Below are positions 38,099 through 55,881 of a stretch of DNA of 64,000 nucleotides, one piece after another. Under the pieces are notes generated by a model. It made no database searches and was not told where the DNA came from. It was given only the letters and a program-made list of their open reading frames with translations. A program made the translations under genes and the position numbers. The stretch is from Paramagnetospirillum marisnigri (GTDB lineage Bacteria; Pseudomonadota; Alphaproteobacteria; Rhodospirillales; Magnetospirillaceae). The first letter of the stretch is position 1, and each line of letters opens with the position of its first letter. The stretch is taken from NCBI RefSeq assembly GCF_001650715.1, contig NZ_LWQT01000038.1, positions 1 to 64,000 of the forward strand, written 5' to 3'.

Positions 38099-39762
38099 TC
38101 GGCCGCCTCCCGCTGCACAGCCATCTCCGGCACGTTGGCGCCGACCAGGGCGGCGGCCATGGGTGGGCAGACGCTGTTTCCGGCCATGCGGACCTGGGCG
38201 CGCTTGGAGAGCGGCTTGCCGTTGTGCTCCAAGTCGATGATGTAACTTTCCGGGAAGCCCTGGGCGCTGAACAGCTCGCGCGGGGTCAGCATGCGCATGC
38301 CGATGTCGGACAGGATGAAGGGTTCCCCCTCCACCATGACGGTGACCAGACCGAAGCGCGGCAGCGCCGTGACAGTGTGCAGAGGCTCGCCACACTCCTG
38401 GCCGTGTTCGGCGGCACCGTAATATTTGGTCAGGAAGGCCGAGACCAGACCGGCATGCTGGCCGGTGGCGGTCACGGTCTTGATCGGGTCGGACAAATTG
38501 CCATTCCCTCCATCGGTTGCTGAGCTGTAAAAGTGGGTCAAGTGGGCCGCGACGACGGAATGATGGTCGGCGGTGGTGACCGTGCCGATGGGCTTCTCAA
38601 CGCCATGTCCGACCACGCCGCCATAGTGTTTGGCGAGGAAGGCCGCGACGAGGGCATGCTTGCCACCACCGGCCACGACCGTCCCCAGCGGCTTCTCGAT
38701 ATCCAGAGCCCGTGGCGCTTGGCCGTCCCGCTCTCCGTAGCCGGTTTGGACGAGACTGGCGGCCACCAGGATCTGATCGGCCTTGGCGGTGATAGTTCCC
38801 ATGGGCTTGTCGGCCGGGCGCGGCGGAGACTGGGCGGCACGGCCACCGCATCCGGTCAGCACCGGGGACACCAGGAGATGCTCGGCCTTGGTGCAGACGG
38901 TGGACAGCGGATCATTCATGTCCCGAACCTTGCCGGAATCACCGTGTCCGGTATGGCCGATACGCACGATGAACGGCTTGGCCGCGTTGACGACGTAGCG
39001 CATGGTGCCGGTGGCCACCCTCCGGCAAGTAGCATCAGCCAGTGGCCGCGCCCGGTCAAAGATGGACGGGCACGGCAGCGACCAGTCGATGATCTCGGCG
39101 GCGGTGCGATAGGGTAACGGCCGCCCAGGCCCATGGGTCGGTTCCGGCCAGATGATGCGCTCGCCGTCGCATCGGGCGATCAGGAACAGCCGCTTGCGGA
39201 TGGTCGGCGCCCCGAAGTCACAGGCGCGCAGCTCGCGCCACTCGACGCGATAGCCCAGTCGCTTCACCTCCCCCACCCACTTGGCGAAGGTCTCGCCGCG
39301 GCGGTCCAGGCATGGCGTCCCGTCATCCAGCAGCGGCCCCCATGTTCTGAATTCCTCGACGTTCTCGAGGAAGATCACCCGTGGCCGGATGTGACGGGGC
39401 AGCTTGGCGTATCCCACCACCACCCAGGCAAGGTCGCGGATGTTCTTCTCGCGCGGCTTTCCGCCCTTGGCCTTGCTGAAATGCTTGCAGTCGGGCGAAA
39501 ACCAAGCCGCGCCTATGGGGCGGCCTGCGGCGACGTCATGGGGATTGGCCTGCCATATGTTCTGGCACCAGTGGTTGGTGTCGGGGTGGTTGACCATGTG
39601 CATCGCCACGGCCTCGGGGTCGTGGTTCAGCGCCTCCTGGGGAGAATAGCCCAGGGCTTCGCGGATGCCCTCGCACGATCCTCCGCCGCCTGCGAATCCG
39701 ACCACGATGATCTCGCCCTGGCGAGATTTAGAAGGGGTGGCATCGGGAAACATGAAGGTCAT
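38095..39762 (-). CDS. Phage DNA (cytosine-5) methyltransferase with repeat-built middle
   Basis: The 555-residue enzyme has motif I GFAGGGGS (22-29), a catalytic SPDC motif (Cys92, in AAWFSPDCKHFS), the ENV motif (133-135), the FGAPTIRKRLFLIA motif VIII-like region and C-terminal motifs IX/X (RELFSAQGFPESY, QVRMAGNSVCPPMA). Between them, from residue 284 to 480, the pattern [DKE]P[LMI]xTVT...HxLV...Y occurs six times at 33-38 residue spacing. The ATG at 39762, with GAGAG upstream, is preferred to a TTG at 39777. It likely protects phage DNA from host nucleases. Target sequence unknown. Confidence 0.88.
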   Translation of the reverse strand: MTFMFPDATPSKSRQGEIIVVGFAGGGGSCEGIREALGYSPQEALNHDPEAVAMHMVNHPDTNHWCQNIWQANPHDVAAGRPIGAAWFSPDCKHFSKAKGGKPREKNIRDLAWVVVGYAKLPRHIRPRVIFLENVEEFRTWGPLLDDGTPCLDRRGETFAKWVGEVKRLGYRVEWRELRACDFGAPTIRKRLFLIARCDGERIIWPEPTHGPGRPLPYRTAAEIIDWSLPCPSIFDRARPLADATCRRVATGTMRYVVNAAKPFIVRIGHTGHGDSGKVRDMNDPLSTVCTKAEHLLVSPVLTGCGGRAAQSPPRPADKPMGTITAKADQILVAASLVQTGYGERDGQAPRALDIEKPLGTVVAGGGKHALVAAFLAKHYGGVVGHGVEKPIGTVTTADHHSVVAAHLTHFYSSATDGGNGNLSDPIKTVTATGQHAGLVSAFLTKYYGAAEHGQECGEPLHTVTALPRFGLVTVMVEGEPFILSDIGMRMLTPRELFSAQGFPESYIIDLEHNGKPLSKRAQVRMAGNSVCPPMAAALVGANVPEMAVQREAAE

Positions 39763-53787: not shown

Positions 53788-54413
53788 GCCAGAACACCTC
53801 CACCGCCGTCATGCAGCGCCGCCGGGAGCCGGCCGACAGCCTGGACTATTTCCCGACGCCGCCATGGGCCACCAGAGCCCTATGCGAGCGGGTCGTTGCC
53901 TCCGGCCTAATCGGCGGTCTATCCGCCTGGGAACCAGCCTGCGGGAATGGCCACATGGCCCGGCCGCTGGCTGAGTATTTCGGGTCCGTCACCGCAAGCG
54001 ATGTTCACCCTTATGGCTTTGGCCAGGTGATGGATTTCCTGTTTCCATCCCCGCCGCCGGTCGAACCGGACTGGATCATCACCAACCCGCCTTTTCGGCT
54101 GGCCGCCGAGTTCGTTCACCGCGGCCTGGGCATCGCCCGGCAGGGTGTTGCGATGCTGGTGAGAACCGCATTCCTGGAGGGCGTCGAGCGCCACGCCAGC
54201 CTGTTCAGTGTCCATCGCCCGTGGGCTGTCATGCAGTTCGCTGAGCGCGTGCCGATGGTCAAGGGGCGGCTGGATAAATCCTCCAGCAGCGCCACCAGCT
54301 ATTGCTGGATCGTCTGGCGCACCGACGTTCGGGTGAATGACACCGCCATGTTCTGGATAGCGCCCTGCCGGAAGCGGCTGGAGCGGGACGAAGACTATCA
54401 GGTGGTGGCATGA
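53784..54413 (+). CDS. Phage class I DNA methyltransferase
   Basis: The 209-residue protein has SAM-binding WEPACGNGHMARPL (about 49-62) and the catalytic NPPF (about 101-104), the order of adenine-N6 or cytosine-N4 DNA methyltransferases. The first 25 residues hold the phage-typical DYFPTPPWAT. It is smaller than many relatives and likely recognises a short target. It overlaps the 41-codon ORF and the replication gene. Confidence 0.85.
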   Translation: MSQNTSTAVMQRRREPADSLDYFPTPPWATRALCERVVASGLIGGLSAWEPACGNGHMARPLAEYFGSVTASDVHPYGFGQVMDFLFPSPPPVEPDWIITNPPFRLAAEFVHRGLGIARQGVAMLVRTAFLEGVERHASLFSVHRPWAVMQFAERVPMVKGRLDKSSSSATSYCWIVWRTDVRVNDTAMFWIAPCRKRLERDEDYQVVA

Positions 54414-55255
54414 GCGGATTCATCCTGCTGCACCGCGACCTGATCGGTAACCCGCAGTTTCGCGGAAAAGACGATGAATACGCCGCCATTTGGCTGATCA
54501 CCAACGCCGCTTGGGAGCCAACCACCGCGCGGGTGGCCGGAAAGCTAATCAGCCTAGACCGGGGCCAATGCTGTTTCGCCACATCGTTCCTGGCCCAAGC
54601 ATGGGAGTGCAGCAAGGCGACCGCACATGCCCGGCTAAGACATTTTGAGAAAAACGGATTTATCCGAACGGAGGTCCGAACGGGCATCACAGTCATAACC
54701 GTTTGTAAATACGCAGATTATCAACCTTCCACAAACGCTCCCCGAACGCACGTCCGAACGAGCCCCGAACGCTCCCCGAACGACGTCCGAACGAAGAAGA
54801 ATGAAGTTAATGAAGTTAATGAAGTTAATGAAGATACTGCTGCTGCTGCGCGCGCGGACGTGAACGCTGTTCTCGACCAATCCCGCCTTGTCGGCAAAAC
54901 GGTCCTCTCGCTGATGGGGATCGATCTCACGAAGCTGGATGCCGCCCACTGGCTCAGCAAGCTCGACCGCGCTGCGACGTGGCTTGCTGACGGCTTCGAC
55001 CCTGACCTGGACATCTATCCGGCCGTGAACGCCGTTCTCGACCGGGAGCGCTTGTCCAAAAACGACCCGTCATGGGTTCCTGCCTCGCTGAGGTATTTCG
55101 ACCGCGCCATCGCTGATCGACGCGTGGAGCGAAGCAATAAGCTTTCTTGCCGTGATGCCGTCCCGGTTGGAAGCCACCGTCCCCACCCCAAATCGGCATC
55201 AGCGGCATTCGACCGCCTTGACGCCGAGCTTGCCGCCAGGAGGGCTCCTGAATGA
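54410..55255 (+). CDS. Phage replication protein with internal origin
   Basis: The 281-residue protein has a winged helix N-terminal domain (about 50-100, FATSFLAQAWECSKATAHAR, LRHFEKNGFIRTEVRTG), a linker containing the iteron and AT-rich bases, and a helical C-terminus (ADVNAVLDQSRLVGKT). This is the layout of lambda O-type initiators. The stretch NEVNEVNEVNED is encoded by the AT-rich repeats and may have little protein role. The next gene would be the helicase-loader position. Confidence 0.78.
   Translation: MSGFILLHRDLIGNPQFRGKDDEYAAIWLITNAAWEPTTARVAGKLISLDRGQCCFATSFLAQAWECSKATAHARLRHFEKNGFIRTEVRTGITVITVCKYADYQPSTNAPRTHVRTSPERSPNDVRTKKNEVNEVNEVNEDTAAAARADVNAVLDQSRLVGKTVLSLMGIDLTKLDAAHWLSKLDRAATWLADGFDPDLDIYPAVNAVLDRERLSKNDPSWVPASLRYFDRAIADRRVERSNKLSCRDAVPVGSHRPHPKSASAAFDRLDAELAARRAPE
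54742..54793. repeat. Iteron array of the phage origin
   Basis: CCGAACG occurs at 54742, 54754, 54765, 54776 and 54787, at 12, 11, 11 and 11-base steps, about one helical turn. Two more copies at 54664 and 54676 lie upstream. They sit inside the replication gene, as in lambda. Confidence 0.75.
54794..54835. repeat. AT-rich unwinding element next to the iterons
   Basis: Three direct repeats of GAAGTTAAT (9 bp) within an AT-rich tract follow the iterons directly. Such tracts melt first at iteron-type origins. The region also codes for part of the replication protein. Confidence 0.65.
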
Positions 55256-55881
55256 ACGCCATTGCTCCCGCCCGTCTGTCCATGCCCGTCGCGGCGAAGC
55301 ACCGCGCAATTCTGGCGGAAAGCCTCAATGGAAGTGCCCCGACAATCGCCGACAACGACCCTCTGATCCCGGCCGAGGAATGCCGGGCCATCGTGGCCGA
55401 GATGACCGCCGCCCTCGGACGCTGCGATCCTGAAATCGCCGCCAAGCATGCCCGCCTGATCGTGGCCAGCTATGGCGGACAGAAGCCCGATGACCCGGAC
55501 GGCTACATCCGCATGATCACCACGTCGGTTGCCCAGTGCCCGCCCGATCTGCTGACAAGGCTCGTCGACGAAGTCCCCCGCCGCCACCCCCGATATCTGC
55601 CGAGCAAGGGCGAAGTCGACGCCGTGGTATCCGATCTGACGCGGCCCAGGTCCAATGCCCGCCAGATTGCTCAGGCTCACATTGCCGCCCATGCCAAGCG
55701 GGACACTGCCGGAGATGAGGCGAAGCGCCACGCCGCCTGGGAAGCCAGGCTGTCGCCGTCCGAGCGGGAAGCTTTGGCCCGTGTGCGGGAAGCGCGGGCT
55801 CGGGGAGAGAGCATCGCCAGCCTGATCGGCGGGAATGGCCCCAATGCCATGCCGCTGCATCCCCAGGAGGCGCGGCGATGA
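55252..55881 (+). CDS. Phage protein in the helicase-loader position
   Basis: A 209-residue helical protein with AKHARLIVASYGGQKPDDPD, TSVAQCPPDLLTRLVDEVPR and YLPSKGEV in the middle. Similar unnamed proteins follow O-type replication genes in related phages. Helicase loader is possible from context but not from a motif. It overlaps both neighbours (ATGA). Confidence 0.6.
   Translation: MNAIAPARLSMPVAAKHRAILAESLNGSAPTIADNDPLIPAEECRAIVAEMTAALGRCDPEIAAKHARLIVASYGGQKPDDPDGYIRMITTSVAQCPPDLLTRLVDEVPRRHPRYLPSKGEVDAVVSDLTRPRSNARQIAQAHIAAHAKRDTAGDEAKRHAAWEARLSPSEREALARVREARARGESIASLIGGNGPNAMPLHPQEARR

What the first reader, a model, noticed from the sequence alone, without database searches (positions are those of the whole stretch)
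54664..54835. Iteron-type phage replication origin inside the replication gene
CCGAACG is repeated seven times, five of them at 11-12 base steps, immediately before an AT-rich tract with three GAAGTTAAT repeats, all inside the reading frame of a winged-helix replication protein. This matches the lambda O/ori layout (established) but with a repeat unit I do not recognise. The helical phasing is seen directly; origin function is inferred.
Basis: partly seen in the sequence, partly recalled or inferred. Interest (0 to 1): 0.75.

Follow-up and report, generated by a model that had tools for sequence, protein, structure and literature searches.

The report
Phage origin written inside its initiator
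A prophage gene for a replication-starting protein carries, inside its own coding sequence, a row of evenly spaced short DNA words that the protein itself most likely binds to start copying the phage; related phages use other words, and the word changes together with the DNA-reading part of the protein.

Summary
Observation confirmed. CCGAACG occurs seven times (54664-54793), in all three frames, inside gene 54410-55255, next to the most AT-rich 45 bp of the prophage part of the window. Synonymous recoding never gives this (0 of 10000).

Relatives strengthen the case. 46 of 57 family representatives repeat a 7-base word 4-8 times beyond a synonymous-shuffle null (p<=0.01); 2 of 159 neighbouring ORFs do. 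In 45 genes the copies fit one 11.2-bp lattice (bootstrap 11.15-11.25, not 10.5) that typically starts in DNA coding the inferred wing and resumes 66-68 bp later in the linker. The word tracks the inferred recognition helix, residues 70 and 73 above all (partial Mantel r=0.60). DNA-only scans for such arrays return many initiator-like genes, some with the matching helix. A second DNA element, TA in a rare codon of the gap, is kept whatever the word (40 of 43, then 18 of 18).

Best reading: an intragenic origin bound by its own initiator, a known kind (lambda, SPP1, Tuc2009) in a new variant. Binding, replication and the winged-helix fold are inferred; no structure model could be made.

The parts
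54410..55255 (+). initiator gene (281 aa): N-terminal DNA-binding domain, repeat-coded linker, exchangeable C-terminal part
   Evidence: ORF; PHROG 2514 DnaD-like helicase loader E=1.9e-18 over residues 1-149, PHROG 345 'O-like' E=4.8e-5; no Pfam family above its cut-off
54605..54637 (+). codons 66-76 (ECSKATAHARL), inferred recognition helix; residues 70 and 73 are the best predictors of the repeat word
   Evidence: helix assignment inferred from the alignment, no model
54634..54663 (+). AT-rich island upstream of the first repeat (70% AT)
   Evidence: 30-bp windows: tied third with several others; codons kept in L009 and mostly in L222
54664..54670 (+). iteron 1 CCGAACG (inferred wing-coding DNA)
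54676..54682 (+). iteron 2 CCGAACG (inferred wing-coding DNA)
54695..54724 (+). gap element: codons 96-105, AT-rich, consensus nTA-ACc-aTn-TGt-AAn-TAc-GAc-nAa-TAT-CAg in the family, kept irrespective of the repeat word
54731..54737 (+). ACAAACG here; CCGAACG at the aligned place in L009 (gained copy)
54742..54748 (+). iteron 3 CCGAACG
54754..54760 (+). iteron 4 CCGAACG (lost in L009)
54765..54771 (+). iteron 5 CCGAACG (second reading frame)
54776..54782 (+). iteron 6 CCGAACG (third reading frame)
54787..54793 (+). iteron 7 CCGAACG
54794..54838 (+). AT-rich tract (76% AT) with GAAGTTAAT x3 at 54803, 54812, 54821: candidate unwinding element
   Evidence: top of 28764 45-bp windows in the prophage part
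54830..55740 (+). block shared at 79.7% with viral contig L011, whose N-terminal domain is different: module border at the end of the AT tract

Best explanation
The 54.63-54.84 kb stretch is the prophage's replication origin, lying inside the gene of its own initiator. The N-terminal domain of the 281-aa protein (inferred winged helix) binds CCGAACG through its recognition helix. Protomers sit side by side on an 11-12 bp lattice: two in the DNA that codes the wing, then a 66-bp AT-rich gap, then five in the linker-coding DNA. The assembled complex strains the DNA and opens the adjacent AT-rich tract (54794-54838); the C-terminal part then helps to bring in the helicase. SHOWN: the repeats, their lattice, DNA-level constraint beyond the protein, co-variation of word and helix, the AT tract. 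INFERRED: binding, fold, opening, helicase recruitment, origin function.
For: Seven copies in three frames, 0 of 10000 synonymous recodings. Synonymous codons frozen exactly over the array in L009 and less strictly in L222 and L257. Family: 46 of 57 representatives at p<=0.01 (median 6 copies against null mean 2.3), neighbouring ORFs 2 of 159. Common lattice 11.20 bp in 45 genes, wing-to-linker gaps of 66 (19 genes) and 68 (9 genes) on it. Word against helix: partial Mantel r=0.60, p=0.0002, 43 genes; in 16 DBDs under 60% identity the top columns are 73 (z=6.0) and 70 (z=5.3); pair L063/L064 changes word at five aligned sites and helix together. DNA-only scan with CCGAACG arrays returns ORFs with SK[AS][TS]A[HY] in 6 of 24, CGGGACA arrays in 0 of 68 (Fisher p=1.9e-4). 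AT content of the 45 bp after the array exceeds the gene's in 44 of 45 genes (0.635 against 0.440). Tuc2009 Rep, annotated 'contains origin of replication' and reported to bind repeats within its own gene (PMC8965321, passages), has 4 copies of CAACCA at 11-bp steps in three frames (p=0.0005); r1t ORF11 has 4 of GGAACC (p=0.0005).
Against: No binding or replication data for this family. 7 of 57 representatives show no significant repeat (p>0.05: L012, L023, L024, L025, L067, L068, L084) and 4 more only p 0.01-0.05. The word also correlates with the rest of the DBD after the helix is held constant (r=0.21, p=0.0002), so shared descent contributes. TP901-1 Rep and lambda O do not show the 11-bp chain (p=0.31, 0.20). 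L011-type N-terminal domains show no significant chain (p=0.24-0.54, five genes). The exact AT repeats are not conserved, and in 14 of 45 genes the most AT-rich 30 bp lies 83-114 bp before the array's end, i.e. near the gap, not after the array. The same word CGGGACA occurs in ORFs outside the DBD family, which self-recognition alone does not predict.
Confidence: 0.8

Rival explanations
1. The array is an operator in the gene: the protein binds it to repress its own transcription or to time early transcription, and the origin is elsewhere.
For: Same binding evidence as above; self-binding arrays can be regulatory.
Against: An operator would be expected at the promoter; here the array is in mid-gene and followed by the most AT-rich 45 bp of the prophage part. 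The comparable in-gene arrays of lambda, SPP1 and Tuc2009 are origins (passages).
Confidence: 0.1
2. The repeats are a by-product of slippage or of a low-complexity basic linker, without DNA function.
For: The linker is disordered-looking and the AT tract is a 9-bp in-frame repeat; 12/12-spaced arrays found by the DNA scans sit mostly in such protein repeats.
Against: Three frames, differing spacers; conserved rare codons; same word at five aligned sites changed together with the helix; synonymous null never reached; neighbouring ORFs 2 of 159.
Confidence: 0.03
3. A host or other phage protein, not the initiator, binds the words; the initiator only acts next to them.
For: CGGGACA arrays occur in initiator-like genes of several families without the DBD (7 of 56 primosomal phrog_3992, 6 of 56 phrog_9474; overlap not resolved).
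Against: Within the family the word follows residues 70 and 73 of the encoded protein and changes between close relatives, which a host factor would not cause.
Confidence: 0.06

Closest known systems
Lactococcus phage Tuc2009 Rep (ORF16)/ori and r1t ORF11
   Same: Replisome organizer with direct repeats inside its own gene; Tuc2009 record says 'contains origin of replication'; PMC8965321 passages say Rep2009 and TP901-1 ORF13 bind repeats within their genes that serve as ori. I find 4 x 6-mer at exact 11-bp steps in three frames in Tuc2009 and r1t.
   Different: No sequence relation found to Tuc2009 Rep (r1t was not compared); longer arrays, repeats already in the DNA before the gap, other words, gap element. 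TP901-1 Rep has no such chain.
Lambda / Stx phage O protein and ori
   Same: Iterons in the middle of the initiator gene, followed by an AT-rich tract needed for unwinding (PMC7466680, passages).
   Different: Lambda iterons are 18 bp at 20, 24, 23 bp steps (annotation); here 7-bp words at 11-12 bp. No sequence relation to lambda O. Lambda's mean step, 22.3 bp, is twice 11.17, possibly coincidence.
SPP1 gp38 / oriL
   Same: Origin-binding protein, direct repeats within gene 38 and AT-rich unwinding element (PMC6316719, passages).
   Different: Sequence not available here, so spacing and homology were not compared.
PHROG 2514 DnaD-like helicase loader
   Same: Match E=1.9e-18 over residues 1-149.
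   Different: The family name is an annotation; helicase loading was not tested, and the C-terminal part lies outside the match.

Membership tests
Intragenic iteron-type phage origin (lambda O, SPP1 gp38, Tuc2009 Rep kind) | Several direct repeats inside the initiator gene, beyond protein constraint | tested here: met
Intragenic iteron-type phage origin (lambda O, SPP1 gp38, Tuc2009 Rep kind) | AT-rich tract next to the repeats | tested here: met
   family 44 of 45 genes
Intragenic iteron-type phage origin (lambda O, SPP1 gp38, Tuc2009 Rep kind) | Encoded protein binds the repeats | not testable with these tools
   co-variation with recognition helix only
Intragenic iteron-type phage origin (lambda O, SPP1 gp38, Tuc2009 Rep kind) | Fragment supports replication with the protein | not testable with these tools
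   none
Lambda O protein family | Sequence homology to lambda O | tested here: not met
   BLASTP E=1.2, hhalign probability 0.1; PHROG 345 'O-like' E=4.8e-5 is a weak link
Lambda O protein family | About 18-bp iterons at 20-24 bp steps | tested here: not met
   7-bp words at 11-12 bp
Rep2009 (Tuc2009) replisome organizer family | Sequence homology to Tuc2009 Rep | tested here: not met
   hhalign probability 0.1
DnaD-like helicase loader, PHROG 2514 | Profile match | tested here: met
   E=1.9e-18
DnaD-like helicase loader, PHROG 2514 | Winged-helix fold / DnaD fold | not tested
   15 prediction requests met a full queue; no PDB chain found with profile A3 at E<=1

The most novel reading that the evidence does not exclude
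Many unrelated phage initiators use one architecture: 7-bp words on an 11.2-bp lattice laid across the initiator's own DNA-binding-domain and linker codons, so that the protein filament holds DNA about 6% underwound (11.2 against 10.5 bp per turn) and thereby drives opening of the next AT-rich tract. The word can be read off two residues of the recognition helix, and a word-independent TA element in the gap is a second, undescribed origin part.
Probability: 0.35. Interest if true: 0.85.

Novelty: new variant of a known kind. Interest (0 to 1): 0.68.

Why it matters
If right, origins of many uncharacterised phages can be located from the initiator gene alone, and their binding word predicted from two residues. 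The family gives natural matched pairs of protein and DNA word, a good test bed for how an initiator filament melts DNA, an open question for lambda-type and DnaD-type initiators. It also shows how one stretch of DNA satisfies three demands at once: protein, binding sites, and helical spacing. My ten paper searches of an open-licence library listed no paper whose title or shown abstract describes this lattice or code; most subscription papers, including Weigel and Seitz 2006 and the TP901-1 and r1t papers, are not held, so absence from print is not established.

Tried and rejected
Protein repeat: rejected, three frames. Tandem slippage: rejected, spacers differ. Chance: rejected. IHF or DnaA box in the gap: consensus sites recalled from memory and compared by eye only; not seen. 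'L011 has its own 11-bp array': I believed this at first; the chain test gave p=0.46 (L089, same gene) and 0.24-0.54 in its relatives, so I dropped it. A codon-identity figure of 0.93 for iteron codons is circular, because codons were chosen for holding the same word in both genes; one search replaces it with fixed columns (wing 793/1232 against residues 1-65 3112/7616 for pairs with the same word; 982/2057 against 5195/13086 for different words). Out-of-sample test of the code in 385 genomes per word: CGAGACA 0 genomes (the backward control pattern hit one genome, 8 places); CGCGACA 4 genomes, none recognisably this family; CGACGCA 4 genomes, one of them (L278) this family with nine copies on the lattice, residue 73 R as predicted but residue 70 P, not A. 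Alignment A1 was too diverse to scan with. Sequence search of the PDB with profile A3 found nothing at E<=1.

Rows dropped before counts: of 74 DBD members, 17 as near-duplicates (>=90%) or shorter than 130 aa; of 46 significant genes, L026, L081 and L070 had no common register and were left out of the word-helix test; of 112 multi-frame loci, 19 had no ORF of 100 aa or more; of 37 DBD ORFs from the DNA scans, 10 already in the first set and 9 without the gap motif pattern were left out of the 18 of 18. L242, the window's own contig, was left out of the motif test. L091 (same protein length and repeat positions as L090) was not run.

Full report
OBSERVATION. The gene 54410-55255 codes 281 aa. 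CCGAACG occurs seven times within it, at 54664, 54676, 54742, 54754, 54765, 54776 and 54787, in three reading frames, with steps 12, 66, 12, 11, 11, 11. Neither 5000 codon-usage recodings nor 5000 synonymous shuffles of the gene reach seven copies of any 7-mer within 130 bp (largest 5). The AT-rich tract 54794-54838 is the most AT-rich 45-bp window of 28764 in the prophage part held here, and the 30-bp stretches at 54634 and 54695 are tied for third place with others. So the order is AT island, two repeats, AT-rich gap, five repeats, AT tract. The prophage extent (from about 35192) is taken from the IMG/VR contig that holds this gene.

THE PROTEIN. PHROGs gives 'DnaD-like helicase loader' (phrog_2514, E=1.9e-18, residues 1-149) and more weakly 'replication initiation O-like' (phrog_345, E=4.8e-5); Pfam gives nothing above cut-off. 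The winged helix is inferred from the alignment (recognition helix about residues 66-76, wing about 84-94); no fold could be predicted because the machine was busy at all 15 requests. The gene before it looks like a DNA methyltransferase (phrog_799) and the one before that like a DNA helicase (phrog_16); the gene after it matches nothing.

NEAREST RELATIVES. L009, from a MAG titled Telmatospirillum sp., is 80% identical over residues 1-138 and has another C-terminal part. It keeps six copies in register, loses the one at 54754 and gains one at 54731, so the number in the array stays seven; two more CCGAACG lie further downstream in its own C-terminal part, 68 and 133 bp after the array. Identical residues share the codon in 22 of 56 (residues 1-70), 13 of 14 (71-84), 14 of 16 (85-104), 18 of 19 (105-132), 8 of 25 (133-281). 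With L222, found by DNA pattern alone, the figures are 14 of 40, 9 of 12, 9 of 11, 14 of 17, 11 of 28; with L257 11 of 39, 6 of 9, 4 of 8, 12 of 17, 6 of 12. A recent recombination block could explain part of the L009 pattern, but not the family pattern below. L011 shares the C-terminal part and 79.7% of the following DNA (54830-55740) but has another N-terminal domain: domain exchange at the end of the AT tract. Its own repeats are not significant.

FAMILY SURVEY. Scans of viral contigs and genomes and six phage records, five of them fetched, gave 74 members counted, 57 representatives under 90% identity and of 130 aa or more. In 46 of 57 the most repeated 7-mer of codons 61-160 exceeds 400 synonymous shuffles at p<=0.01; 50 of 57 at p<=0.05; median 6 copies against a null mean of 2.3; in 45 of 57 the copies use all three frames. 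Not significant: L012, L023, L024, L025, L067, L068, L084. Control: 159 other ORFs of the same loci, 2 at p<=0.01 and 7 at p<=0.05. Words include CGGGACA, CGGGGCA, CGAGACA, CGCGACA, CGACGCA and CCGAACG.

LATTICE. Over 45 genes with four or more copies, the best common period is 11.20 bp (bootstrap 11.15-11.25; score 0.70, against 0.04 at 10.5 and 0.06 at 12). Adjacent steps: 11 (108 times), 12 (44), 22-24 (40), 66 (19), 68 (9) and others. The gap codes the strands after the wing and the KYxxYQ motif, which protein needs would seem to bar from carrying the word; the array resumes on the same lattice. The steps were not used to choose the words, except that copies had to lie within 180 bp.

WORD AND HELIX. 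For 43 genes with a common register the word follows the recognition helix: partial Mantel r=0.60 (p=0.0002) given the rest of the domain; the rest given the helix r=0.21 (p=0.0002), so descent also counts. Residues 70/73 are A/H with CCGAACG (2 genes), A/R with CGACGCA (3), A/S with CGAGACA (4), D/A with CGCGACA (3), S/D with CGGGACA (19) or CGGGGCA (7), S/S and T/E with CGGGACA (2 each), S/M with TGGGACA (1). Among 16 domains under 60% identity columns 73 and 70 come first (z 6.0 and 5.3; next 3.5). L063 and L064 (61% identical domains) differ in word at five aligned sites and in helix (DKAAVSRF, SKDQVARF); one old-word copy remains in L064.

DNA-ONLY SCANS. 86 and 26 of them hold an array with at least one 11-bp step; 93 of these 112 have an ORF of 100 aa or more. 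38 of 93 match phrog_2514, against 4 of 42 ORFs with 12/12 arrays only. 37 of 93 hit a profile of this family; among the other 56, 7 match a 'primosomal protein' family, 6 each two 'replication initiation' families, overlaps unresolved. Many of the rest look unrelated. SK[AS][TS]A[HY], the window's helix motif, occurs before the array in 6 of 24 CCGAACG ORFs and 0 of 68 CGGGACA ORFs (Fisher p=1.9e-4); four of the six (L216, L227, L229, L252) resemble each other and are not independent. In 60 related genomes only the window's own genome has the CCGAACG array, at this one place.

GAP ELEMENT. In 43 genes residue 96 is coded ATA (33), GTA (4) or CTA (3), codons with background shares of 0.11, 0.11 and 0.07; Cys99 is TGT in 30 of 39 (background 0.18); Tyr104 TAT in 36 of 37 (0.48). 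In 18 further family ORFs from the DNA scans the TA is present in 18 of 18 (background 0.14), TGT in 10 of 16, TAT in 12 of 14. Codon identity in the gap is 0.66 for pairs with the same word and 0.69 for different words. I have no tested explanation; a flexible, easily bent or melted spacer is a guess.

KNOWN SYSTEMS. Passages of PMC7466680 (lambda/Stx O), PMC6316719 (SPP1 gp38) and PMC8965321 (TP901-1, Tuc2009) describe origins inside initiator genes. In the fetched records Tuc2009 Rep has CAACCA four times and r1t ORF11 GGAACC four times at exact 11-bp steps in three frames (each 0 of 2000 shuffles), while TP901-1 Rep and lambda O have no such chain. The Tuc2009 gene is annotated as containing the origin. 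This is the firmest link from the layout to function, through one system reported by others.

MECHANISM. Inferred: one protomer per word, a filament or spiral over about 130 bp, 11.2 bp per step. If successive protomers face the same side, the DNA must be underwound by about 6% relative to 10.5 bp per turn (textbook value, recalled); a gently coiled complex is the alternative. Opening of 54794-54838 and helicase recruitment follow by analogy with lambda and SPP1.

VERDICT. Ordinary in kind, not in detail: an intragenic origin in a phage initiator family, with a lattice, a wing-coded start, a word-helix code and a gap element that I did not find described in the papers I could search. The genome statistics are strong, the biochemistry is missing.

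Noticed in passing
window 54695-54724 and aligned places in 43 genes: Word-independent conserved DNA in the gap (TA in a rare codon at residue 96, TGT, TAT), unexplained.
   Followed up: partly
L114, L139, L147, L148, L155, L166, L170: CGGGACA arrays at 11-bp steps sit behind an RKRRQR-type motif in ORFs without this DNA-binding domain: the same layout in apparently unrelated initiator-like proteins.
   Followed up: partly
L216, L227, L229, L252: ORFs not matched by this family's profile share the SK-S-TA-H/Y helix motif and CCGAACG arrays with the window gene; convergence or deep homology.
   Followed up: partly
L271 (lambda 39034-39118): Lambda's four annotated iterons have a mean step of 22.3 bp, twice 11.17, close to the lattice found here.
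   Followed up: no
L009 5001-5837: Two further CCGAACG copies 68 and 133 bp beyond the array, in the unrelated C-terminal coding part.
   Followed up: no
window 55252-55881: The gene right after the initiator (209 aa) matches no Pfam or PHROG family; by position it could be a helicase loader.
   Followed up: no
L174 78-161: Six overlapping 11/11 CGGGACA array matches with only a 59-aa open frame on that strand, near the locus end.
   Followed up: no
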